DNA of 64,000 bases from Carnobacterium sp. 17-4 (GTDB lineage Bacteria > Bacillota > Bacilli > Lactobacillales > Carnobacteriaceae), in assembly GCF_000195575.1 (NCBI RefSeq), contig NC_015391.1, positions 62,001 to 126,000 on the forward strand, read 5' to 3'. Positions 4,833-37,035 of this stretch are shown here, piece by piece; positions within the stretch are counted from its first letter, which is position 1, and each line of letters opens with the position of its first letter. The notes beneath the pieces are model-generated. The model worked only from the letters and a program-made list of their open reading frames with translations, ran no database searches and was not told the DNA's origin. The position numbers and the translations under genes are program-made.

Positions 4833-6080
4833 ATGAAAAAAGAACACTATAGAATGGTTATTGCAGGTATGTTGTTGATGCTAGGATTAGGCATCCCAAT
4901 CAATGGGATGGGCGTATTCACAGTTCCAGTAACAACAGCATTAGGATTTACTGTTTCCCAGTTTAGTATTGTAAGCAGTTGCTTGAGTCTAATTGGTATT
5001 GTTAGTATCCCAGTTTTATCCAAAAGCATGATTCCAAAAATAGGATTAAGAAATACTGCTTTTATAGGTGGAATTACAGGGGTTTTAGGATTTATTTGGA
5101 TGGCAAATAGCACATCTATATGGTCATTCTATCTTGCATCATCTCTAATTGGTTTATTGTTAATGGTTTCTACAAGTATGGTAGCCGTAACAATGGTAAA
5201 TAATTGGTTTGTGAAAAAACATGGAACTATAATGGGTATAATTGCAGCAACGATGGGTTTAAGTGGCGTTATTGTAAACGCTGTTATTCCATCTGTTGTA
5301 GAAAATAATGGTTATAGCACAGGTTTTTATGTAATGGCAGCCTTATATGGGGTAGCTGTTATTGGTGGAGCTTTACTTCTTAGAGATAAACCTGAAGATT
5401 TAGGAACAGTAGCTTATGGTAAAGAAGAATCAGCCATTAAAGAACCGAATGCAGCAATGGTAACCAACGAATCAGAAGAAGCTGTACCTGAAGGCTTAAC
5501 ATTTGCTGAAGCAATCCGTTCACCTATCTTCTACTTTGCAGCAATTGCCTTTATCTCATTTGTAATGGTTAGTACATTTACCCAACAATTACAAGTATTC
5601 CTAGTTTCAACTGGAATTAACATTGTTCAAGTTGGTGCTATGATGTCTATGGCTTCAATTGCTATGATCATATCTAAAATTGCAATGGGATCTATAAGTG
5701 ATAAAATTGGTTCGAAAACGACGTATATTGGCTTAGCAATTATATTTACTACGGCCTTCATTATTTTCTTTTCAACAAGTTCACCAATCATTTTATTTGT
5801 AGCATTACTTATGTATTACATGTGTGCAGGTACGCCAAATGTTTTACATCAATTGATTACCTTAGATTTATTTGGGAAAAAAGACTTTACCGCTATTTGG
5901 GGAATGCTAGCTGTTGCAGCAAATATCGGTTTAGCGATTGGGAATCCAATTTTAGGTCTAATGTATGACTTAACTGGAACTTACCAATTAACCATTACTG
6001 TATGTATTGTATTGATGATCATTTGTATGGTATCGTTCTTCCTTGCAAATCATACTAAAAAAAGAAGTCAAATTCGTTAA
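4833..6080 (+). CDS. MFS transporter (OFA/monocarboxylate-like)
   Basis: A 415-residue protein with twelve predicted membrane segments and a central hydrophilic loop around residues 190-225. The N-terminal GMGVFTVPVTTALGFT followed by a VSQFSIVSS helix is typical of OFA-type carriers (oxalate/formate, bile-salt and other carboxylate transporters). Such proteins move small organic anions across the cytoplasmic membrane; the substrate is unknown here. The start has AAGGAAATG nearby. It is monocistronic. Confidence 0.8.
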   Translation: MKKEHYRMVIAGMLLMLGLGIPINGMGVFTVPVTTALGFTVSQFSIVSSCLSLIGIVSIPVLSKSMIPKIGLRNTAFIGGITGVLGFIWMANSTSIWSFYLASSLIGLLLMVSTSMVAVTMVNNWFVKKHGTIMGIIAATMGLSGVIVNAVIPSVVENNGYSTGFYVMAALYGVAVIGGALLLRDKPEDLGTVAYGKEESAIKEPNAAMVTNESEEAVPEGLTFAEAIRSPIFYFAAIAFISFVMVSTFTQQLQVFLVSTGINIVQVGAMMSMASIAMIISKIAMGSISDKIGSKTTYIGLAIIFTTAFIIFFSTSSPIILFVALLMYYMCAGTPNVLHQLITLDLFGKKDFTAIWGMLAVAANIGLAIGNPILGLMYDLTGTYQLTITVCIVLMIICMVSFFLANHTKKRSQIR

Positions 6081-21924: not shown

Positions 21925-22476
21925 ATGTCACTAGGTCAGTCGCTAAGAGAAGCACGAGCAGCAAAGGATCTCACTCAAGAAGATATCGCTAAAGTATTAT
22001 ACGTTACTCGACAAACTGTTTCGAGGTGGGAACAAAATAAAACACTTCCTAATATTTTTGTTTTACAAGAATTAAGTAGCCTCTATGGACTGTCGATTGA
22101 CGAACTGATTTCTGAAACAAAAAAATCTATCCAAAAGAAAGAGGAGGAAATATCTATGAAAAAATTCAATTGGTTTGCGTTAGCTGGGGTACTCTTGTTC
22201 AATTTACTGTTATTTTCAGTAGTAGCTTTAACAATTATCTTACTCGTTTTTTCCCTTTGGTTAATTACAGGAACTTTTATTGTATCGCCACTTTTACTTC
22301 TAGGAGCTAATGTAACCGGGATACAAAACTTTTCAATATTCCAATCATTTGCAAGTATCTTTTTATGTCTCGCTGGACTCGTTCTTTATCCACTGGCTAA
22401 AAAGACTACTCAAACCTTAGTTGATTCTCTTACAAAATACGTAAAATACAACAAAAAAATGGTTTATAGCGAGTAG
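21925..22476 (+). CDS. XRE regulator fused to membrane domain, copy 1
   Basis: A 183-residue protein. Residues 1-65 are a helix-turn-helix domain (SLGQSLREARAAKDLTQEDI, then VTRQTVSRWEQNKTLPN); residues about 88-160 form three membrane helices. The layout suggests a membrane-tethered repressor. The paralog at 23914-24465 is about nine-tenths identical. The ribosome site AAAGGAG is clear. Likely self-regulated through the dyad at 21841. A membrane signal might free or trap the DNA-binding domain; this is inference. Confidence 0.8.
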   Translation: MSLGQSLREARAAKDLTQEDIAKVLYVTRQTVSRWEQNKTLPNIFVLQELSSLYGLSIDELISETKKSIQKKEEEISMKKFNWFALAGVLLFNLLLFSVVALTIILLVFSLWLITGTFIVSPLLLLGANVTGIQNFSIFQSFASIFLCLAGLVLYPLAKKTTQTLVDSLTKYVKYNKKMVYSE

Positions 22477-23913: not shown

Positions 23914-24465
23914 ATGTCATTAGGTCATTCGCTAAAAAAAGCAAGAGCAGCAACGAATCTCACTCAGGAAGATATTGCCAAAAAATTATATGTTACTCGA
24001 CAAACCGTTTCGAGGTGGGAACAAAATAAAACACTGCCCAATATTTTTGTTTTACAAGAATTAAGTAACCTCTATGGACTATCGATTGACGAATTGATTT
24101 CTGAAACAAAAAAAGCTGTACAAAAGAAAGAGGAGGAAGTGTCTATGAAAAAATTCAATTGGTTTGCGTTAGTTGGTGTACTATTGTTCAATTTAATTTT
24201 ATTTTCAGCAGTAGCTCTAACAGCTATCTTACTCGTTTTTTCACTTTGGTTAATTACAGTAACCTTTATCATATCACCAATATTACTTCTAGGCGCTAAT
24301 GTAACGGGTGTGCAAAGTTTTTCAATTCTCCAATCTTTCGCAAGTATCATTTTATGTCTCACTGGAATAGTTCTTTACCCGTTAGCTAAAAAGATTACTC
24401 AAACCTTAGTTGATTTTTTTACAAAATATGTAAAATATAACAAAAAAATGGTTTATAGTGAGTAG
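23914..24465 (+). CDS. XRE regulator fused to membrane domain, copy 2
   Basis: A 183-residue paralog of the protein at 21925-22476, with the same helix-turn-helix (VTRQTVSRWEQNKTLPN) and three membrane helices; most differences are conservative changes in the membrane part. Both copies are intact, which argues that each is still selected. AAAGGAG precedes the ATG. The duplication covers the regulatory dyad, the gene, the decayed site remnant and the terminator, and runs into S14. Confidence 0.8.
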   Translation: MSLGHSLKKARAATNLTQEDIAKKLYVTRQTVSRWEQNKTLPNIFVLQELSNLYGLSIDELISETKKAVQKKEEEVSMKKFNWFALVGVLLFNLILFSAVALTAILLVFSLWLITVTFIISPILLLGANVTGVQSFSILQSFASIILCLTGIVLYPLAKKITQTLVDFFTKYVKYNKKMVYSE

Positions 24466-27437: not shown

Positions 27438-28304
27438 CTATGTAATCTGATTATTGCTCTTTACTACTTCAAATAATGAAGTACATTGGAATTCTTTTAA
27501 TGGCATATCTAAATAGACAAATAAAGAAATAATTTTTTCTATATTTTTATTATTATAATTCTTTGAACTCATTATAGTTACTAATTCTTTAAAAAAAATC
27601 ATCATTGTTTTTTCATACATTGTATTAATAGTTTCAGACATATTATTTTTAAGTTCCTCATAGAAAAAGCAAGATTTGTTAATATTATTTTTTTTAATAA
27701 AAATAACTAAAATATTTGATAACAACGAAAAAATTTCATTATTATACTTTCTTAACATTTTAAAGTGTTCTAGTTTACTTTTAGTTCTTTTATATAGTAA
27801 CAATATTTGTTCTTCGGAAAATAAATCTAATGAATTGGTAAATAAAACTATTTCATAATAGGTCCAGTCTTCACAATTAAGAAGGTAAGATTGTAGAATA
27901 TCTAGACTTTTTGAATTGGGTTTTTCATTTAAGATATAACTAATTGTTAAATCAGTTAGCACTGAATAATGAAAGAGTTTTATTTGATTATTAACTTTAT
28001 ATTTTTCTTTAAGACTAATTTTCAACTTTTTTAAATTTTCAATATCATTTTGATAAAAATATTGGGAATATTTACTAAGGAAAGTGTGTTCATCATCTAA
28101 GTTGTAATTGTTATAAATAAGGTAGAATTCATCTAAAGAAACGTTTAAATTATTTAGTATTTGAAATAGTTTTGTAGAAGTAGTATCACTGAGCCCCTTT
28201 TCAAATTTTGAAATTGCAGGACGACTTAAAATGTTGCTATATGTATTTGATGTTTTTATTTTTTTTGACGTTCTAATAGTTTTTATTACTTTTCCTATTT
28301 TCAT
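27438..28304 (-). CDS. Rgg/GadR/MutR-family transcriptional regulator
   Basis: A 288-residue protein: an XRE helix-turn-helix (residues 3-60, with the diagnostic LSRPAISKFEKGLSDTT, typical of Rgg proteins) and an all-helical TPR-like remainder that in the family binds a short peptide pheromone. It is transcribed away from the bacteriocin genes, and a 15-codon peptide gene ending in Gly-Gly lies divergently 114 bases away. The layout is that of Rgg-SHP systems, in which the imported peptide switches the regulator to activate the operon. The ribosome site is AAGGAGC before the ATG. Confidence 0.9.
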   Translation of the reverse strand: MKIGKVIKTIRTSKKIKTSNTYSNILSRPAISKFEKGLSDTTSTKLFQILNNLNVSLDEFYLIYNNYNLDDEHTFLSKYSQYFYQNDIENLKKLKISLKEKYKVNNQIKLFHYSVLTDLTISYILNEKPNSKSLDILQSYLLNCEDWTYYEIVLFTNSLDLFSEEQILLLYKRTKSKLEHFKMLRKYNNEIFSLLSNILVIFIKKNNINKSCFFYEELKNNMSETINTMYEKTMMIFFKELVTIMSSKNYNNKNIEKIISLFVYLDMPLKEFQCTSLFEVVKSNNQIT

Positions 28305-28328
28305 ATAAGCTCCTTATTTTGTTTCTTA

Positions 28329-28380
28329 TTGTTAACATTTTAACATATAAATTATGAATACTATATGTTATTTATAGTAT
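28329..28380. promoter_or_regulatory. two dyads between Rgg gene and peptide gene
   Basis: TGTTAA-CATT-TTAACA (28330-28345) and ATACTATA-7-TATAGTAT (28358-28380, eight perfect base pairs per arm). They sit in the divergent promoter region, where Rgg proteins bind, and are candidate Rgg boxes for the peptide gene and bacteriocin operon. They do not match a published Rgg box exactly. Confidence 0.55.
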
Positions 28381-28417
28381 GAAAAATTAAGAAATATATA
28401 TATAGGAGGAAAATACG

Positions 28418-28465
28418 ATGTCAGAAACAATCAATATTTTAGTATGGGATGTTATTGGTGGATAG
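28418..28465 (+). CDS. candidate short peptide pheromone of the Rgg regulator
   Basis: AGGAGGA at 28404-28410 leads at ideal spacing to ATG and a 15-residue peptide, MSETINILVWDVIGG, then TAG. Hydrophobic C-terminus, an internal Asp and a terminal Gly-Gly resemble the mature SHP pheromones of streptococcal Rgg2/3 systems (short, Asp/Glu-containing, ending in GG). It is divergent from the Rgg gene and upstream of the bacteriocin operon. It is unlike classical SHP precursors in lacking a Lys-rich N-terminus and being shorter. Precursor processing and import (Eep- and Opp-type) would be encoded elsewhere. Confidence 0.7.
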   Translation: MSETINILVWDVIGG

Positions 28466-28625: not shown

Positions 28626-30170
28626 ATGTTAAATATAATTTTGGCTAATCATATAATGTACTTCAGAAGTAATTTAAATATTCTATTTTCAGATTATTAC
28701 TTTAGTAAGAAAAAAATTCTTTATTTTACACTTAGCATAACTTGTATATGTTTATTTGTAAGTCTGATTATAGGGTTTTCTTTAATTCAAATTTTAGGTA
28801 AGGAGAGCTACAACAGAGTTATTGAATTTTTTTTACTATTTTATTTTCTATACTTATCTAGTTCTAATATAAAAAAATCAACCTATCGATCAAAAAAGAA
28901 GTTTTATTATTTTCTTTCTGAAGAAGGCTCAAAACTAAAAAAAATAGTATGGTTAAAATTTATAGATGACAGAATAAGTTGGGTAATTGTAGTTTTTTTT
29001 CCTATATTCGTAGGACTAATTTTAAATCTTTCAGTAGTAGAATTATCACAATATGTATACTTCTTTGTACTTTTTTTTTCAGCTACTTTTGTTTCAATAT
29101 TCATTAGAGTAATGTTCATAAGTAGATTTCTACAAGGAGAAAAAATTATAAATAGAAATAACTTACTTTCGAAAATAATTCTATTTTTCTTTATGAATAT
29201 CTTTTTTTCCCTATTGCTTTACTATATAATGGACTATTTTTATAAAAATAGTGAACTAAATTTTCTTATAGTTAGTAACATAGTTAGTTTTTTTAAACCC
29301 CAAGGTACCTTAGTAATTTCTTTAGTGATGATACCGATTACTTATTATATATCTAATATATATATAAAAAAATATATCTTTTTAATACTCAAAAAAGGCT
29401 ACAAAGGAAATTTAAATAAACAAAAGAAGGTTCTTTATAAACCATATAGTGATGTAATGAATTTTATCAAAAAAAATGAAATTCAGATTAGTAGAAGCAA
29501 TGGAACTAGAATATTTTATTATAAAAAGTTATTTTTCTTTTTTACTTTTATAGTTACAACTACTATATTTTTTAAAAATATAAATATTGAATTGGGAGTT
29601 TTACATTCTCTTTTAACTTTAGCACTGATAATATTCATAAGTAATTTGTTTGATACATTTGAAGAAACCCATGGAATTGACAAAGAAAGTCAGATGATTA
29701 CAATCATGATGTACTTATACCGAAGACCGTATGAATTTTTAAAAATAAAGTCTACAGAAATATTTTTAATGAGTTTAATACCAAGTATAGTTCTTTCTAT
29801 TGTGATTTTTATAATACTACAAGATATTAGTTTATTACTAACATATTTAAATATAAGTTTTACTACATCTTTAGTTCATACATGCAGTTATATAATAAGC
29901 GTTATTATATTTCCTAATTTTAGAAATAGAATTGAAGAGGGTAAAAACATTGCGAGATCATTTGTGTCATCGTTTTTAATCATTGGATATGAACTTTTAT
30001 TAGTTACTCAAATAATATCGTTAAATTTATTTGTATATGTAGATAGAATAAATGAAATTTCAGCATTTGCTATTTCAAATTTAAGTATTTTATTTGTTGG
30101 AACGATATATTTTGTGATTTTCTTTAGCTTAATAATAAAAATTAAATGGGAGAAATGGATTAATGGATAA
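28626..30170 (+). CDS. circular bacteriocin large membrane protein (CclB/As-48B-like)
   Basis: A 514-residue, very hydrophobic protein with about eleven predicted membrane segments and short basic loops. It is the first large gene of the bacteriocin operon, at the place held by the B protein in carnocyclin, uberolysin and AS-48 clusters. That protein is required for maturation, cyclisation or secretion, though its chemistry is unproven. Membership is argued from size, topology and neighbours; sequence similarity to those proteins was not tested. AAAGGAAG precedes the ATG, and its end overlaps the ATPase gene by 8 bases. Confidence 0.65.
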   Translation: MLNIILANHIMYFRSNLNILFSDYYFSKKKILYFTLSITCICLFVSLIIGFSLIQILGKESYNRVIEFFLLFYFLYLSSSNIKKSTYRSKKKFYYFLSEEGSKLKKIVWLKFIDDRISWVIVVFFPIFVGLILNLSVVELSQYVYFFVLFFSATFVSIFIRVMFISRFLQGEKIINRNNLLSKIILFFFMNIFFSLLLYYIMDYFYKNSELNFLIVSNIVSFFKPQGTLVISLVMIPITYYISNIYIKKYIFLILKKGYKGNLNKQKKVLYKPYSDVMNFIKKNEIQISRSNGTRIFYYKKLFFFFTFIVTTTIFFKNINIELGVLHSLLTLALIIFISNLFDTFEETHGIDKESQMITIMMYLYRRPYEFLKIKSTEIFLMSLIPSIVLSIVIFIILQDISLLLTYLNISFTTSLVHTCSYIISVIIFPNFRNRIEEGKNIARSFVSSFLIIGYELLLVTQIISLNLFVYVDRINEISAFAISNLSILFVGTIYFVIFFSLIIKIKWEKWING

Positions 30171-30789
30171 AACAATTAAAGTAGAAAGCTTATCTTTTGC
30201 TTACTCACAAGAAGAAAAGATCTTGGATAATATTTCCTTAGAAATTAAAGAAAAAGATATAGTAGGACTAATTGGGAAAAATGGTTCTGGAAAAACTACT
30301 TTACTAGAATGTCTGTACGGTTCTTTAATTTTTGATGGAAAAATTTCCAGTTCATTTGAAAAAAAGCTATTTCTACCAACTGATTTAGAATTGTTTGGGA
30401 ATTTGACTTCAAAAGAGATGATAGATTTACTATTAAAGTTACATAAAAAAAATTTTAAGGATACAGAAAATGAAATTGATCTTTTAGTTAATTCTCTTGG
30501 TTTAGAGAATAAAATGTCTATCTTAATAAATCAACTCTCCTTTGGAATGAAAAATAAAATAAAAATTATGCTAGCATTATTGCTCAAACCAGATCTGCTA
30601 TTACTAGATGAACCAATGGTTGGTTTAGATTTACAATCACAGATTCATCTGAAAAAAATACTTAAAGAGATAGCACAAAAAAATAACATAGGGATAGTAA
30701 TTTCTTCTCATGATATGAACCTAATAGAGGATATTTGTACTGAAGTTATAGAACTAAATGCAGGAAAATTAAGATATTCCCCAGTCTAA
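30163..30789 (+). CDS. ABC transporter ATPase of bacteriocin cluster
   Basis: A 208-residue ATPase: Walker A GKNGSGKTT near residue 39, signature LSFGMKNKI, Walker B LLLLDEPMVGLD, H-loop SSHDMN. It overlaps the preceding membrane-protein gene and probably powers it, corresponding to the D/T ATPase of circular bacteriocin clusters that supports export and part of self-protection. Confidence 0.85.
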   Translation: MDKTIKVESLSFAYSQEEKILDNISLEIKEKDIVGLIGKNGSGKTTLLECLYGSLIFDGKISSSFEKKLFLPTDLELFGNLTSKEMIDLLLKLHKKNFKDTENEIDLLVNSLGLENKMSILINQLSFGMKNKIKIMLALLLKPDLLLLDEPMVGLDLQSQIHLKKILKEIAQKNNIGIVISSHDMNLIEDICTEVIELNAGKLRYSPV

Positions 30790-31933: not shown

Positions 31934-32020
31934 TATTAAATATATCGTGGTTTATAGGGTTATCCATTAGCACCTTAAAAAAGGAAAAACCCTAAATATA
32001 TCGAAAGGAGGAGTTCTTAA

Positions 32021-32239
32021 ATGATTGAATTAACTATGGAGTTAATGAATTCAATGAATATTGGTCGCAGTACAGCAACGCATGTTATTGATTTAGCAGT
32101 AGCGGGTGCATCTGCATGGGCTATTGTAGCATCTATTGCAGCTGGCGGAGGTATTATCGCAATTGGAGCAGTTGCAGTTCGTACTTTGATTAAGTCTAAA
32201 TTGAAAAAACTAGGTTATACTGCATTAGTTGCATGGTAG
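32021..32239 (+). CDS. circular bacteriocin precursor (uberolysin/amylocyclicin-like class I)
   Basis: A 72-residue precursor behind AAAGGAGGAG. It is cationic and hydrophobic, with a helix-rich core, Gly42-Gly-Gly44 in the middle, the basic run SKLKKLGY and a C-terminal VAW. Aligning LMNSMNI with the LASTLGI start of amylocyclicin, and MIELTME with the MDILLE leader of uberolysin, places cleavage at Glu7/Leu8. Leu8 would then be joined to Trp72 as a 65-residue circle; an aromatic C-terminal residue is typical (AS-48, uberolysin and amylocyclicin end in Trp). It permeabilises Gram-positive membranes by family analogy. The core differs throughout from carnocyclin A. Confidence 0.85.
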   Translation: MIELTMELMNSMNIGRSTATHVIDLAVAGASAWAIVASIAAGGGIIAIGAVAVRTLIKSKLKKLGYTALVAW

Positions 32240-32260
32240 TTTAATACACAGTTTGTAGAG

Positions 32261-32305
32261 TAGGTGGTTCCATAACTATTAATGGAGTCACCTATTTGAT
32301 TTTTA
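32261..32305 (+). terminator. hairpin after the bacteriocin structural gene
   Basis: TAGGTGGTTCCA pairs with TGGAGTCACCTA (two wobbles), followed by TTTGATTTTT. It may be a leaky terminator that lowers expression of the downstream genes, or a 3' stabiliser of the structural-gene mRNA. Confidence 0.65.
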
Positions 32306-32404: not shown

Positions 32405-32944
32405 ATGAATGAGGAAGTAATAGAGAATAAAAAGTTTCCATGGGGAGCAATGATAGTTTATATAGTAATTTTTCTGAGTGGGATATTTTTCACAACATTT
32501 ACAATAGAAGTGATACCTTTAGAAGGTTTCGAGGAAGTAGAACCTTTTTCAATAATGAGTACATTGGTAGGCGGAATTATAGGTGCTATTGGAGGATTGA
32601 TAATTTTAGGTATTCAATACGTTTTTACTAAGTTTCCGACTCAGTGGATATCAAAAGAAAAAAAGGTTTATAAATACGACATCTGGTCAGCTTTATTTTA
32701 TTCTAGTGCTATAGGAATCGTGATAAACCTCTTAGTACAGGAGTTTAGTATTCAAGATAATTTAACGATTGCCTTATTAGTTGATGTCATTACGACAGGT
32801 TTATTCCTGTTTTTCTATTTTTCAGGCGAAGAGAAAGAAGCACATGTCAAGAAATCTATTACGATTGTTCAGATAGCTTGGCTGGCTATAGAAATTATCT
32901 TTACTGTGATTTCAATAATGCTATTAAGTAATCTTGGGATTTAA
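32405..32944 (+). CDS. membrane protein of accessory immunity unit (As-48E/CclE-like)
   Basis: A 179-residue protein with five to six membrane segments and an acidic N-terminus. It lies 165 bases after the precursor gene and 18 before the adaptor, in the place of the E protein of the EFGH transporter that gives extra self-resistance in AS-48 and carnocyclin producers. No clear family motif, so the assignment is positional. TGGAGG precedes the ATG. Confidence 0.6.
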   Translation: MNEEVIENKKFPWGAMIVYIVIFLSGIFFTTFTIEVIPLEGFEEVEPFSIMSTLVGGIIGAIGGLIILGIQYVFTKFPTQWISKEKKVYKYDIWSALFYSSAIGIVINLLVQEFSIQDNLTIALLVDVITTGLFLFFYFSGEEKEAHVKKSITIVQIAWLAIEIIFTVISIMLLSNLGI

Positions 32945-32962
32945 AAGAAAGTAGGTATAAAT

Positions 32963-34198
32963 GTGAAAGCAAAAGACAAAAAAATGCCGAACCGTTCATT
33001 CTTGAAGCGGATTGGCGAAAGAAAAGGACTCCTCGCTGTCGGAATTATAGTGGTACTTATACTGATTTTCTTTATTGTTCAGTTCTTTCAGAGCTCTGGT
33101 GTGCAAATTGAAGCAGAGGAGATGTATTCAGTACATATTGTGAGAGAAGAAGATCCAATCTTGTTTGAGGGAATGGTAAAGGCTTCAGAGGTTCATGAAG
33201 AGTACTATGATCCGTCAAAAGGCGTGATCGCTGAAATTCTGGTGGAAGAGGGACAGGAAGTAGAAGCAGAAACGGAACTATTTACTTATACAAATGAAGA
33301 AAACCAACGATTGCTAAATGAACAGAATCGTCAACACAATCGACTAAAAGAACGTCGATCTGAAGCAGAAACAGAACTAGCAAATGCCAAAAATACGTTG
33401 GCTACGGCGAATGCAAACATAAAAAAAAACAATCAGAATGTGCAAGCGCCTGTTGAGACAGAAGAAAATTTAGATATGAATGCAGAATTTGAAGCTGCAC
33501 AAACAGACCTGATGGAATATGAATCAGATAAAGCAGAAGCGGAAGCAATAATCGAAAGTGTTGAGGTGAGTATTCGAGATCTAAATGATCAAATGGAAGA
33601 TATTGAGTATGAGATTGAAAACTTAAGAAATGCTGTCACGACAACCGTTACAGCAGATTTTTCAGGAGTCGTTGAACTGAACAATACGAATGCGGCAAGT
33701 CTAGAGTCTAGTGAACAGCCTATTATTCGCTTATTGTCTAAAGACGTAAAAGTCGAAGCGTCTGTTTCTGAATATGATTACAATAAAATAAAAGAAGAGA
33801 GCCTCGTGCAAATCAGTTTGATGAGCTCTGATAAGCAAGTGAACGGGAAAATCAATCAAATCAGTTCTCTACCTATGCAAGCTGATGCAGAAGGCTCTTC
33901 TTCTTCAAGATACCAATTTACAGTTATACCAGAAGAGCCTATTCAATATGGATTCTCTGTTCAAGTTGGTTTCAGTGAAGGTGTCATCTATCTGCCGCAG
34001 TCTGCTGTGATTAAAGAAGATGGAACTAAAATCGTCTTTGTAAATGTTGACGGAATCGTTGAACGGCGAGAAGTCGAAGTTCGAGAAGAGAGTAATTTCT
34101 ATATTTTAGATGCTGGATTAGAGATAGACGAAGAATTACTGCTAGACCCAAGTCCCGAGATTGCTGATGGTGATGAAGTTATGGTGATGTATGATTAA
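32963..34198 (+). CDS. HlyD/MacA-like efflux adaptor (As-48F-like)
   Basis: A 411-residue protein: cytoplasmic basic N-terminus, one membrane anchor (residues about 21-43), a lipoyl-like half (GVIAEILVEEGQEVEAETELF), a long coiled coil (about 105-215, rich in E, Q and A), the second lipoyl half (TVTADFSGVVELNN) and a beta-barrel ending in GDEVMVMYD. It bridges the extracellular side to the MacB-like permease, as As-48F does. Start is GTG. Its stop overlaps the ATPase gene by 8 bases. Confidence 0.85.
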   Translation: MKAKDKKMPNRSFLKRIGERKGLLAVGIIVVLILIFFIVQFFQSSGVQIEAEEMYSVHIVREEDPILFEGMVKASEVHEEYYDPSKGVIAEILVEEGQEVEAETELFTYTNEENQRLLNEQNRQHNRLKERRSEAETELANAKNTLATANANIKKNNQNVQAPVETEENLDMNAEFEAAQTDLMEYESDKAEAEAIIESVEVSIRDLNDQMEDIEYEIENLRNAVTTTVTADFSGVVELNNTNAASLESSEQPIIRLLSKDVKVEASVSEYDYNKIKEESLVQISLMSSDKQVNGKINQISSLPMQADAEGSSSSRYQFTVIPEEPIQYGFSVQVGFSEGVIYLPQSAVIKEDGTKIVFVNVDGIVERREVEVREESNFYILDAGLEIDEELLLDPSPEIADGDEVMVMYD

Positions 34199-34865
34199 GC
34201 TAGAAAAAATCAGGAAAGCTTATAAAGCAGATAAAGAGTGGATTCCTGTATTGAAAAATGTCGAAATGGAGGTCAAACAAGGAGACTTTTTAGCGATTAT
34301 GGGGCCATCTGGTTCAGGTAAATCTACTTTGCTGAATTTAATTGGATTTGTTGACCGTAATTATGATGGAAACTATTTTCTAGAAGGAACTATCGTTACG
34401 TCAAAAAATGATGCGGATCTATCTAAACTTAGAAATCAGCGAGTCGGTTTTGTATTCCAGCAATTCAATCTGATTGAGACATTGACGATTGAAGAAAACG
34501 TAGAGTTACCTTTGCTGTATGATGGATGGAACTATCGTCAAACTAAAGACAAAGTAACGGAACTCCTTGGAAAGCTGGGAATAGGTGATAAAGGTAAAAA
34601 AATGCCTAAACAATTATCAGGTGGGCAACAGCAGAGAGCTGCAATTGCTAGAGCTATTATCAATAATCCGGATTTCATCTTAGCAGATGAGCCCACTGGA
34701 GCGCTTGATACACATACATCCAGAGATATTATGAATATATTCAAACAGTTGAATGAAGAAGAAGGAGTTACTATTATTCTAGTCACGCATGATCCGAAGA
34801 CTGTTGAATATTGTAACCGTATAGTCCGTATGCAAGATGGCGTATTGACTGAAGAAGTGAGGTGA
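34191..34865 (+). CDS. MacB/LolD-type ABC ATPase (As-48G-like)
   Basis: A 224-residue ATPase: Walker A GPSGSGKST near residue 39, Q-loop VFQQFNLI, signature LSGGQQQRAAIARAI, Walker B FILADEPTGALD, H-loop THDPKT. It drives the FtsX-type permease encoded 4 bases downstream. The tight overlap with the adaptor gene shows a single functional unit; by analogy with AS-48 EFGH it clears the bacteriocin from the producer's membrane. Confidence 0.9.
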   Translation: MIKLEKIRKAYKADKEWIPVLKNVEMEVKQGDFLAIMGPSGSGKSTLLNLIGFVDRNYDGNYFLEGTIVTSKNDADLSKLRNQRVGFVFQQFNLIETLTIEENVELPLLYDGWNYRQTKDKVTELLGKLGIGDKGKKMPKQLSGGQQQRAAIARAIINNPDFILADEPTGALDTHTSRDIMNIFKQLNEEEGVTIILVTHDPKTVEYCNRIVRMQDGVLTEEVR

Positions 34866-34869
34866 AGAA

Positions 34870-36075
34870 TTGAGCCCGTTAGTGTTCTTTAAAGGTGCAT
34901 GGAATGCACTGCTTAAAAATAAAAAAAGAAGCTTTCTGACGATGATTGGTATCGTAATTGGAATTGCAGCTGTTAGTACGATTATGTCCATTGGTAGAGG
35001 TTTTGAAAACTATGTCGTAGAATCTTTAAATCCTGATGAAGGAGAATTGCTGACAGTAGACATTCAGTTTCAAGCAGACGATGTTGATTGGATGCTTGAA
35101 ACCAATGAAGATTTTTTTTCTGATATGGACTTTCGAATGATTGAGAATATCACCGGCGTTCAAAGTGTGGAAATAATCAGTATGAATTCAGATTTCGCTT
35201 CATTTGATACTGTGATTGAGGGTAAAGAAAATTACATAGAAGCGTCCTTGACAGAGGATAAAGGAAAATCAGTAATTGCTGGGAGGTCACTTGACTTTAT
35301 CGATAATGAAAAAGAAAATCGTGTGGTTGTTGCGCCATTTTCTCTTGTTGAGAGTCAGTATGAGACTGAAGAAGCAGCTATAGGGAAAGGGCTATTCTTA
35401 GGAGATCAACTGTATACAATAGTGGGAATATATGAAGAAGACGTTGATTCTTCAGGTATTTTTGCTGATTTTCTTCCTCAGGAAATCGAAATCCCGAAAA
35501 ATAGCTACAATCGTTATCATGAAGAAGATTTGATAGAAGATCAGATCAGTATAACAGTTGCCAGAGGCTCACTCCCTTCTGATGTAGCGGAAGCAAGTAT
35601 TTCGCTACTGGAAGAAGAAGGGTCAATGAATTATAGAGGTACGTATACGCATTTCGACATGTCTGCTCTGGACGATGGATTATCTCAAGTATTAAGAGGT
35701 ATAACACTATTTATCGCAAGCGTTGCAGGTATATCTTTATTTATTGCTGGAATCGGCGTGATGAATATGATGTACATTTCTGTTTCTGAACGTACAAAAG
35801 AAATTGGGATTCGTCGTGCACTGGGTGCTTCTCAGAAAAGTATTCGAGCACAATTCGTTTTAGAAGGCGTTATGATGACTAGTATAGGAGGTATACTTGG
35901 ATACTTACTTGGCTGGCTATTTTCTTCCATTGCGTCATTCTTTTTACCATTCTCTACAGGATTAGACTTGTTAACGATTCTTGTATCTATAGGAGTCTCT
36001 GCACTAGTAGGACTGATTTTTAGTTACGCACCAGCGAATGCGGCAAGTAAGAAAGAAATTATTGATATCATTTAA
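34870..36075 (+). CDS. MacB/FtsX-type permease (As-48H-like)
   Basis: A 401-residue protein with the four-segment MacB topology: a first helix (LTMIGIVIGIAAVSTIMSIG), a large extracytoplasmic domain (residues about 50-270), and three C-terminal helices with VSERTKEIGIRRALGASQKSIRAQFVLE split across the coupling loop. TTG start after GAGGTGAAG. It is the last gene of the bacteriocin region; the gap 36076-36346 to site S19 holds no convincing gene. Confidence 0.9.
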   Translation: MSPLVFFKGAWNALLKNKKRSFLTMIGIVIGIAAVSTIMSIGRGFENYVVESLNPDEGELLTVDIQFQADDVDWMLETNEDFFSDMDFRMIENITGVQSVEIISMNSDFASFDTVIEGKENYIEASLTEDKGKSVIAGRSLDFIDNEKENRVVVAPFSLVESQYETEEAAIGKGLFLGDQLYTIVGIYEEDVDSSGIFADFLPQEIEIPKNSYNRYHEEDLIEDQISITVARGSLPSDVAEASISLLEEEGSMNYRGTYTHFDMSALDDGLSQVLRGITLFIASVAGISLFIAGIGVMNMMYISVSERTKEIGIRRALGASQKSIRAQFVLEGVMMTSIGGILGYLLGWLFSSIASFFLPFSTGLDLLTILVSIGVSALVGLIFSYAPANAASKKEIIDII

Positions 36076-36483: not shown

Positions 36484-37035
36484 ATGAGTTATAACGTCCA
36501 ACCATTAAGAACGCAACAAGAAATAAACGACTTTTTATTTTGTTTAAGACGCAATAAAAACGCAGATCGGGATGTTTTTCTGTTTTTGATCGGCATTAAT
36601 AGCGGTTTGCGCATGTCGGATATCGTTAAATTAAAGAAACAAGACCTTATTTCCTCAAAAAATCCCCGTATTGTCGAGAAAAAAACAGGAAAAACTCGCA
36701 TTTTGTATTTGAGTAGCCTGCAGGACTTGATCCAGGAGTATACGAAAGACTTAAAGCCAGAGGATTATTTGTTTCCTAGCACCAAAGGTGGTCATGTAGA
36801 AGTGAATACGGTCTATCAGATGTTTCAAAAGGTCGCTAAGCTGTTAGGAAGAGACGATATTGGCACGCACACGCTGCGTAAGACGTTTGGTTACCACTAT
36901 TACAAGAAAACCAAAGACGTGGCCACTCTGATGGAAATATTCGGTCATAGCAGCGAAAAGATCACCAAACGCTATATTGGGATCAATGAAGATGAAATTA
37001 GCGAGACATTGCTTAATTTTAGATTAGGATTTTAA
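36484..37035 (+). CDS. single-domain tyrosine recombinase (cassette integrase candidate)
   Basis: A 183-residue protein consisting almost only of the catalytic domain of tyrosine recombinases: Arg43 (SGLRMSD), a lysine in the EKKTGKTR hairpin, His129-x-x-Arg132 (HTLRKTF), His155 (FGHSS) and the nucleophile Tyr164 (RYIG). The usual N-terminal SAM-like arm-binding domain of XerC/D is absent. GAGGGGAGAGGG precedes the ATG. All cassette sites lie on its upstream side, as in integrons. Base composition is less AT-rich than the array. It is the obvious enzyme for the sites, but this is untested. Confidence 0.9.
   Translation: MSYNVQPLRTQQEINDFLFCLRRNKNADRDVFLFLIGINSGLRMSDIVKLKKQDLISSKNPRIVEKKTGKTRILYLSSLQDLIQEYTKDLKPEDYLFPSTKGGHVEVNTVYQMFQKVAKLLGRDDIGTHTLRKTFGYHYYKKTKDVATLMEIFGHSSEKITKRYIGINEDEISETLLNFRLGF

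What the first reader, a model, noticed from the sequence alone, without database searches (positions are those of the whole stretch)
27438..28465. Rgg regulator and a 15-residue Gly-Gly peptide as pheromone switch of the bacteriocin
A perfectly placed AGGAGGA and ATG encode MSETINILVWDVIGG, divergent from an Rgg-family regulator and directly upstream of the bacteriocin operon, with two dyads between them. The ending Asp-Val-Ile-Gly-Gly resembles SHP pheromones (Asp...Ile-Val-Gly-Gly). Known circular bacteriocins are not, to my knowledge, controlled by Rgg-SHP pairs, and the precursor lacks the usual basic N-terminus, so export or processing may differ.
Basis: partly seen in the sequence, partly recalled or inferred. 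Interest (0 to 1): 0.85.

Follow-up and report, generated by a model that had tools for sequence, protein, structure and literature searches.

The report
Leaderless pheromone switch for circular bacteriocins
A 15-residue peptide without an export leader and the regulator gene beside it form a conserved signalling pair that recurs in four genera next to antimicrobial-peptide genes, mostly circular bacteriocins, whose triggering signals are largely unknown.

Summary
MSETINILVWDVIGG (28418-28465, +) is divergent from an Rgg (27438-28304, -) and opens a circular-bacteriocin operon. Counting the window, the core I-L-V-W-D-V-I-G-G stands upstream of 6 of the 7 orthologous Rggs (57-68% identical) with readable upstream DNA; one more copy lacks such an Rgg. 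Of these 7 peptide loci, 5 hold a circular bacteriocin gene (two families), one a class III lanthipeptide cluster, one an unknown secreted protein. The core is constrained as protein (pN/pS 0.38); the N-terminal residues are not.

A box, TGTTA-N8-TAACA, lies between Rgg and peptide. Within one mismatch its 17-base form occurs only at these loci in nine whole genomes. It recurs before the lanthipeptide genes and, diverged, before the M. kalidii bacteriocin gene beyond the Rgg. It is absent where this Rgg is absent.

The receptor is closest to NrpR and RopB, which read leaderless peptides, not to the SHP receptors Rgg2/Rgg3. Best reading: a long variant of leaderless communication peptide (LCP) signalling that activates bacteriocin genes. 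Export, mature form and activation are inferred.

The parts
27438..28304 (-). Rgg-family regulator, 288 aa, predicted receptor of the peptide
28320..28337 (.). predicted Rgg box TGTTT-CTTATTGT-TAACA (consensus TGTTA-N8-TAACA)
   Evidence: conserved between Rgg and peptide in relatives; only site within one mismatch of the 17-base core in the whole own genome
28373..28378 (+). candidate -10 hexamer TATAGT of the peptide promoter, 35 bases after the box
   Evidence: consensus match 5 of 6; inferred, not tested
28404..28409 (+). Shine-Dalgarno AGGAGG of the peptide
   Evidence: read directly
28418..28465 (+). peptide gene, MSETINILVWDVIGG
   Evidence: conserved core in 6 further loci, pN/pS 0.38 over codons 6-15
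28626..30170 (+). 514-aa hydrophobic protein, first gene of the operon after the peptide
   Evidence: ORF list; no Pfam match at E 0.01
30163..30789 (+). ABC transporter ATPase
   Evidence: PF00005
30811..31347 (+). SpoIIM-family membrane protein (DUF95 type, usual in circular bacteriocin clusters; that usage recalled)
   Evidence: PF01944 73.8 bits
31352..31933 (+). Yip1-like membrane protein
   Evidence: PF04893 22.5 bits, below its cut-off of 28.6
32021..32239 (+). circular bacteriocin precursor, uberolysin/circularin A type, 72 aa; fifth gene after the peptide
   Evidence: PF09221 and TIGR03651 above cut-off
32258..32297 (+). terminator-like hairpin after the bacteriocin gene
   Evidence: 16 pairs and T tail; consensus match only
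32405..36075 (+). 179-aa hydrophobic protein, HlyD-like protein, ABC ATPase and MacB/FtsX-like permease, probable accessory export/immunity transporter (function inferred)
   Evidence: PF13437, PF00005, PF02687/PF12704; none for the 179-aa protein

Best explanation
The pair is a cell-density switch of the leaderless communication peptide (LCP) type. The 15-mer is made without an export leader, leaves the cell, is taken up by neighbours, and its conserved core (about ILVWDVIGG) binds the TPR domain of the Rgg. The loaded Rgg binds the box TGTTA-N8-TAACA just upstream of the peptide promoter and activates it, so that the peptide amplifies its own signal and transcription runs on into the circular-bacteriocin operon. 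In other species the same pair, with the same box, drives other bacteriocin operons, so it is a cassette that can be moved. Shown here: conservation of peptide, receptor, box and antimicrobial context. Inferred: translation, export, import, binding, activation.
For: (1) Peptide core present at 6 of the 7 Rgg orthologues (window included) with readable upstream DNA, plus one copy without that Rgg. (2) pN/pS 0.38 in core codons 6-15, 1.62 in codons 2-5, 7 peptides compared pairwise. (3) Five of 7 peptide loci hold circular bacteriocin genes of two Pfam families (PF09221 in the window and M. kalidii, PF12173 in three Alkalibacterium), one holds LanKC. (4) Box: 8 sites within one mismatch in 7 of 9 genomes, seven beside this Rgg and one before the lanthipeptide genes; a perfect but diverged dyad stands before the M. 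kalidii bacteriocin gene, which lies on the other side of the Rgg from the peptide; none near the peptide in G104, where this Rgg is absent. (5) Receptor closest to NrpR and RopB by sequence of the peptide-binding domain, to NrpR by whole sequence and fold. (6) In S. salivarius the divergent NrpR (RopBss) and its 8-residue LCP drive the adjacent antimicrobial gene cluster through a site just upstream of the -35 of the LCP promoter (PMC10518010, section 7).
Against: The peptide is 15-16 residues (19 in G104), longer than the usual 8-10 of LCPs, and carries Trp and Asp. No expression, secretion or binding data. G012 keeps the Rgg and a perfect box but has no peptide. In G013 the gene after the peptide is an unknown secreted protein, not a recognised bacteriocin. 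The histidine that senses pH in NrpR (H144) is a tyrosine here (Y149). -10-like hexamers do not single out one spacing from the box. The bacteriocin gene is the fifth after the peptide and may also have its own promoter. Whole-fold ranking puts the RopB-SIP complex only 43rd (CTD-only entry). Too few pairs for a covariation test.
Confidence: 0.77

Rival explanations
1. Rgg-SHP system in the strict sense: the peptide is a short SHP precursor, trimmed and exported through the SHP route, and the receptor is an Rgg2/Rgg3-type protein.
For: Core D/N-I-L-x..V-I-G-G recalls SHP2/SHP3 endings (recalled sequences); Rgg144 of S. pneumoniae, an SHP receptor (recalled), is the third fold match.
Against: No leader in any of 7 peptides; C-terminal ends vary (GG, GGN, GGT, TGR, GIG, GGTYRI), unlike a fixed GG end; CTD ranks NrpR 81.6 and RopB 54 bits before Rgg144 39, Rgg2 28 and Rgg3 25.
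Confidence: 0.12
2. The short ORF is a cis-acting leader peptide: ribosome movement over it (Trp codon) controls the operon by attenuation or translational coupling.
For: It is the first ORF of the operon, has a Trp codon, and no terminator-like site parts it from the operon. In J. dankookensis the lanthipeptide genes too lie downstream on the peptide's strand, about 0.7 kb away across the record's origin (coordinates).
Against: Amino acids, not only bases, are conserved across unlike operons; no terminator-like hairpin between peptide and operon for attenuation; in M. kalidii the bacteriocin gene is on the other strand beyond the Rgg and carries its own dyad, and in J. dankookensis a second box stands about 150 bases before the lanthipeptide ORF.
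Confidence: 0.06
3. Intracellular signal: the peptide binds the Rgg inside the cell that made it and is not exported, so the switch senses something other than density.
For: No export leader in any copy; the route by which LCPs leave the cell was not explained in the sections of PMC10518010 that I read.
Against: The LCP of S. salivarius acts through the medium and is re-imported (PMC10518010, section 7).
Confidence: 0.1
4. The Rgg is a repressor (Rgg3-like) that the peptide releases.
For: The box also lies close to the Rgg start codon; one search lists a promoter-like match at 28340-28369 directly after the box.
Against: The box lies upstream of the likely -35 region of the peptide promoter, the place of activator sites for RopB and NrpR (PMC10518010, section 7); in the one locus without this Rgg (G104) the box is missing as well.
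Confidence: 0.12

Closest known systems
NrpR/NIP (RopBss/LCPss) of Streptococcus salivarius, sar gene cluster for salivabactin
   Same: Divergent Rgg-type receptor and leaderless peptide directly before an antimicrobial gene cluster; receptor is the best solved match (30% identity in the fold alignment; 124.8 bits); inverted repeat just upstream of the peptide promoter (PMC10518010, section 7)
   Different: Its LCP is 8 residues and purely hydrophobic; here 15-16 residues with Trp-Asp and usually Gly-Gly; target is a circular bacteriocin, not a PKS/NRPS product; pH-sensing H144 is Y149; other box
RopB/SIP of Streptococcus pyogenes
   Same: Leaderless peptide divergent from the receptor; second-best match of the peptide-binding domain; half site GTTACGTNT (PMC10518010, section 7) shares GTTAC with the box
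   Different: Peptide length and composition, target genes, box layout 9-7-9 against 5-8-5
LasX of lactocin S plasmids (Latilactobacillus)
   Same: Rgg divergent from a bacteriocin operon, 27-33% identical
   Different: Its intergenic region lacks the TGTTA-N8-TAACA dyad as read by eye and holds a 9-residue SIP-like ORF instead; listed as having no evidence of activation by a peptide (PMC12445099, passages)
Rgg2/Rgg3-SHP systems
   Same: Rgg fold, short peptide, Asp...Gly-Gly flavour of the core (SHP sequences recalled)
   Different: SHPs have a leader for processing and secretion (PMC13361665, passages); receptors score lower here
Pneumococcal bacteriocin clusters that switch beside conserved Rgg or TprA regulators (PMC6120550, passages)
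   Same: Conserved regulator, exchanged bacteriocin cargo
   Different: Across strains of one species there; across four genera, with peptide and box conserved, here
Predicted circular bacteriocin of Alkalibacterium AK22 (PMC7132975, passages)
   Same: Same contig as L029/L053
   Different: The paper's main text holds neither 'Rgg' nor 'helix-turn-helix'; the passages describe the bacteriocin only

Membership tests
Leaderless communication peptide (LCP) systems, RopB clan | small ORF divergent from the receptor gene, with a Shine-Dalgarno site | tested here: met
   six of 7 orthologues (window included) with readable upstream DNA
Leaderless communication peptide (LCP) systems, RopB clan | no N-terminal leader | tested here: met
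   six residues before the core in all 7 copies as aligned, no basic-hydrophobic stretch
Leaderless communication peptide (LCP) systems, RopB clan | 8-10 residues, aliphatic and aromatic | tested here: inconclusive
   15-16 codons in six copies and 19 in G104, with Asp and Gly; the paper that defines the class lists longer exceptions and possible precursors (PMC10518010, section 6 part 1)
Leaderless communication peptide (LCP) systems, RopB clan | receptor within the RopB clan | tested here: inconclusive
   CTD ranks NrpR and RopB first, fold ranks NrpR first; no tree with the published clan was made
Leaderless communication peptide (LCP) systems, RopB clan | receptor site just upstream of the -35 of the peptide promoter | tested here: inconclusive
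   5-of-6 matches to TATAAT start 35, 39 and 33 bases after the box in the window, A. olivapovliticus and J. dankookensis, but equally good ones lie elsewhere in two of these; G013 has a 4-of-6 one at 37 by eye; AK22 at 26 or 41
Leaderless communication peptide (LCP) systems, RopB clan | peptide secreted, re-imported, activates target | not testable with these tools
   needs culture work
Rgg-SHP systems | precursor with basic N-terminus and hydrophobic leader | tested here: not met
   all 7 copies lack it
Rgg-SHP systems | receptor of Rgg2/Rgg3 type | tested here: not met
   Rgg2 28 and Rgg3 25 bits against NrpR 81.6 on the CTD
Circular bacteriocins, uberolysin/circularin A type | match to the precursor models | tested here: met
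   PF09221 37.8 against 23.6; TIGR03651 35.9 against 30.7
Circular bacteriocins, uberolysin/circularin A type | head-to-tail cyclised product | not testable with these tools
   needs mass spectrometry

The most novel reading that the evidence does not exclude
A shared pheromone language: Carnobacterium-like bacteria, Jeotgalibaca, Alkalibacterium and Marinilactibacillus read nearly the same leaderless core (ILVWDVIGG), so that different species switch on different bacteriocins, circular and lanthionine, on a common signal, while receptor-only strains such as G012 could listen without speaking. The pair, with its box, moves as a cassette between unlike bacteriocin operons.
Probability: 0.4. Interest if true: 0.8.

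Novelty: new variant of a known kind. Interest (0 to 1): 0.64.

Why it matters
A 2018 review states that the regulation of circular bacteriocins remained largely unknown and that, where kinase/regulator genes are nearby, their activator molecules had not been identified (PMC6131525, passages). Here a peptide, a receptor and a DNA box can be named, each testable with a synthetic peptide of 15 residues. It would give a simple inducer for silent circular-bacteriocin clusters, extend leaderless signalling to a longer Trp-Asp peptide, and offer a case where the signal is conserved across genera while the weapon is exchanged.

Tried and rejected
Tried: genus/family/order searches for the Rgg and for degenerate peptide patterns. 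Of 9 genomes matching the stricter pattern among 395, 6 are peptide loci and 3 (G084, G306, G155) are chance frames; the reversed control pattern matched twice. The looser pattern gave 8 hits in 7 of 18 genomes (control: 3 hits); 2 are peptides and 6 lie in unrelated frames, four of these in one large conserved frame. Viral contigs gave only a 28% partial match. The operon is not in the phage or plasmid collections by megablast. For the distant Rggs L007, L008, L020, L030-L032, L062-L065, L067, L085-L088 I saw no such peptide in the 400-700 bases above the Rgg; L002, L003 and L009-L018 were not looked at; L066 was left out of the scan and L033 did not read as an Rgg. The two AT-rich dyads were set aside as operator because only the upstream box is conserved. 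The tree is weak and in part against a tidy picture: the long-branched LasX and G118 fall in an unresolved fork among the seven full-length orthologues, next to M. kalidii, and only window with G008 is firmly joined (98/93); I do not rest on it. A covariation test of peptide and Rgg was not made: too few pairs. The structure model is middling (pLDDT 78, pTM 0.59, 5 rows); fold ranking is used only beside the sequence ranking. No complex with the peptide was modelled.

Full report
WHAT IS THERE. The short ORF and its ribosome site are as described: AGGAGG 28404-28409, ATG 28418, MSETINILVWDVIGG, stop at 28465. Divergent from it is a 288-aa Rgg (27438-28304, -). Downstream on the same strand, with no terminator-like site between, stand a 514-aa hydrophobic protein, an ABC ATPase, a SpoIIM-family protein, a weakly Yip1-like protein and, as fifth gene, a 72-aa circular bacteriocin precursor (PF09221 and TIGR03651 above cut-off), then a terminator-like hairpin (32258-32297) and an export/immunity-like transporter. 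The genome is 2.69 Mb in two contigs. The first 20 kb of its smaller contig share 91-97% stretches with three Carnobacterium plasmids, and a relative in the same family is titled Carnobacterium sp., so the host is probably a Carnobacterium or near kin (inference).

IS IT CONSERVED? Orthologous Rggs at 57-68% identity were found in seven other places: G008 (= Carnobacterium MAG L026), G012, G013, a Jeotgalibaca dankookensis plasmid, Alkalibacterium olivapovliticus, Alkalibacterium AK22 and Marinilactibacillus kalidii. With the window that is eight. Upstream DNA is readable in seven (the G008 contig ends 89 bases above the Rgg). Six of these seven carry the peptide at the same place with a Shine-Dalgarno site: MSETINILVWDVIGG (window), MSGLIDILVWDVIGGN (G013), MENVIDILVWDIITGR (J. 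dankookensis), MSFIINILVWDVIGGT (A. olivapovliticus), MSFIINILIWDVIGGN (AK22), MLQLMAMLVWDIIGIG (M. kalidii); four of the six start with TTG. The seventh, G012, has none: in 600 bases above its Rgg the only ORF with a ribosome site is an unrelated HTH gene. A further peptide copy, MSLIINILVWDVIGGTYRI in Alkalibacterium G104, has no such Rgg beside it; the only profile match in that genome at E 1e-25 is a distant Rgg at 95 bits.

IS IT CODING AND CONSTRAINED? Over codons 6-15, seven peptides pairwise, pS 0.393, pN 0.149, ratio 0.38; over codons 2-5 pN/pS 1.62. Three of the seven are Alkalibacterium, so the pairs are not independent. A degenerate DNA pattern for I-L-V/I-W-D-V/I-I matched 9 of 395 genomes of the order, 6 of them at peptide loci, with 2 matches of the reversed control pattern; M. 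kalidii, whose core begins with Met, is outside the pattern. For the resampling control see the observation check (run on five of the seven loci, the window and G104 left out).

WHAT DOES IT STAND BESIDE? Circular bacteriocin genes in five of seven peptide loci: PF09221 in the window and M. kalidii (57.4 bits, cut-off 23.6), PF12173 (gassericin A-like) in the three Alkalibacterium (52.7-57.7 bits, cut-off 27). The AK22 bacteriocin was already predicted in print (PMC7132975, passages). J. dankookensis has a class III lanthionine synthetase (670.9 bits, cut-off 575), an ABC transporter and a 45-residue Ser-rich, Cys-ended ORF that is probably the precursor; this ORF starts about 0.7 kb downstream of the peptide on the same strand, across the origin of the record (coordinates). 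G013 has a 257-aa protein with a signal-peptide-like start and no family above cut-off. The operons of the window, M. kalidii and A. olivapovliticus are unlike: between them only the ATPases (24-32% identity) and one weak pair of membrane proteins (E 9e-4) passed 1e-3 in blastp, though each has a SpoIIM-like protein (M. kalidii's below cut-off). So pair and box stay while the cargo changes. Several loci look mobile: AK22 (22-kb contig whose ends split the Rgg, so likely circular), the J. dankookensis plasmid, and, by eye only, transposase-like ORFs near M. kalidii, A. olivapovliticus and G013 and a recombinase-like ORF at 36484-37035 in the window.

THE BOX. Seven of the eight orthologues have GTTACTTATTGTTAACA or a near form close above the Rgg start; in M. 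kalidii only a GTTAAC core is left there. It reads as a dyad, TGTTA-N8-TAACA. In ten sequences totalling about 184 kb the perfect dyad occurs five times: four times at the Rgg and once before the M. kalidii bacteriocin gene (L028 5190-5207, gene at 5264), which lies on the far side of the Rgg from the peptide. One-mismatch dyads are common (seven in the window, one of them the box), so only the longer core is specific. With that 17-base core at one mismatch, nine whole genomes gave eight sites in seven genomes: seven beside the Rgg, one before the J. dankookensis lanthipeptide genes (record position 92, ORF at 259), none elsewhere; the reversed control gave two, both in G013; G056 (M. kalidii) and G104 gave none. 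In its own genome the window box is the only site at up to one mismatch; at two mismatches there are four more, against three for the control, so those four mean nothing. The box thus recurs before antimicrobial genes that start away from the peptide, and is missing in the one locus where this Rgg is missing.

THE RECEPTOR. The family profile matches NrpR (9lth) at 124.8 bits, Rgg144 90.7, Lmo0325 86.4, Rgg3 77.2, RopB (CTD only) 74.9, Rgg2 about 74 (names). The window CTD alone gives NrpR 81.6, RopB 54, Rgg144 39, Lmo0325 28, Rgg2 28, Rgg3 25. Foldseek also ranks NrpR first, though the model is middling and RopB's CTD-only entry ranks 43rd. The alignment sets NrpR H144, its pH sensor (PMC12186490, abstract and passages), against Y149 here (my count), so pH sensing by that residue is not expected. 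The tree is too weak to use.

HOW IT LIKELY WORKS. By analogy with NrpR and its peptide (PMC10518010, section 7): peptide made without leader, released, re-imported, bound by the Rgg, which then activates the peptide promoter from a site just above the -35 and reads through into the operon. In that study import did not need the Opp permease, so the ten oligopeptide-binding proteins found in this genome do not settle the route. The variable first residues and the variable ends of the peptide suggest that the mature signal is the inner core; this is inference.

KNOWN OR NEW. Leaderless Rgg signalling is known, and Carnobacteriaceae are named in its survey (PMC10518010; I read the abstract, section 6 part 1, sections 7 and 9, and passages). 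Its main text holds neither Alkalibacterium, Marinilactibacillus, Jeotgalibaca nor 'bacteriocin', but I could not read its lists, and this pair may be in them. No held paper contains any of four strings of the peptide core or the terms circular bacteriocin, transcriptional regulator and Carnobacteriaceae together. Eight papers hold 'circular bacteriocin' and 'Rgg'; I saw passages of two (PMC6120550, PMC7595303) and only the listing of the other six. Only open-licence papers were searched. Precedents: pneumocyclicin's pfgR regulator (PMC4517551, passages) and pneumococcal bacteriocin clusters switching beside conserved Rgg/TprA (PMC6120550, passages). Other papers, passages only: PMC6131525, PMC7132975, PMC12186490 (also abstract), PMC12445099, PMC13361665. 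Verdict: new variant of a known kind, well supported as a conserved unit, function inferred.

Noticed in passing
L020 7872-7901 (-); same in L085 and L086: Between lasX and the lactocin S gene, divergent from lasX, lies a 9-codon ORF MYLIGLFLL with an AAAGGG ribosome-site-like stretch, much like the leaderless peptide MWLILLFL of S. salivarius (PMC10518010). LasX is listed in print as without evidence of activation by a peptide (PMC12445099, passages); this is a candidate. The three plasmids are near-identical there, so conservation is not tested.
   Followed up: partly
L021 15025-15927: G012 keeps an intact Rgg and a perfect box but no peptide: a possible listener or a decaying copy.
   Followed up: partly
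L088 2423-3283 (Rgg) and upstream: Lactiplantibacillus plantarum pEM7: distant Rgg with a 23-residue SHP-like ORF (MKQSKPMIFIKTAILAFSIWILI) before a ThiF-family gene.
   Followed up: no
L087 1852-3313: Enterococcus raffinosus: distant Rgg divergent from a lactococcin G-beta/enterocin 1071B family bacteriocin gene.
   Followed up: no
window 21925-22476 and 23914-24465: Two very similar 183-aa proteins (XRE-type HTH followed by hydrophobic segments), apparently a duplication (by eye).
   Followed up: no
window 31940-32010: Inverted repeat (AGGGTT...AACCCT) between the Yip1-like gene and the bacteriocin ribosome site; perhaps a processing or attenuation hairpin. Seen by eye, not folded.
   Followed up: no
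L022 3742-4515: G013: 257-aa protein with a signal-peptide-like start and no family above cut-off, directly after the peptide; a possible new antimicrobial.
   Followed up: no
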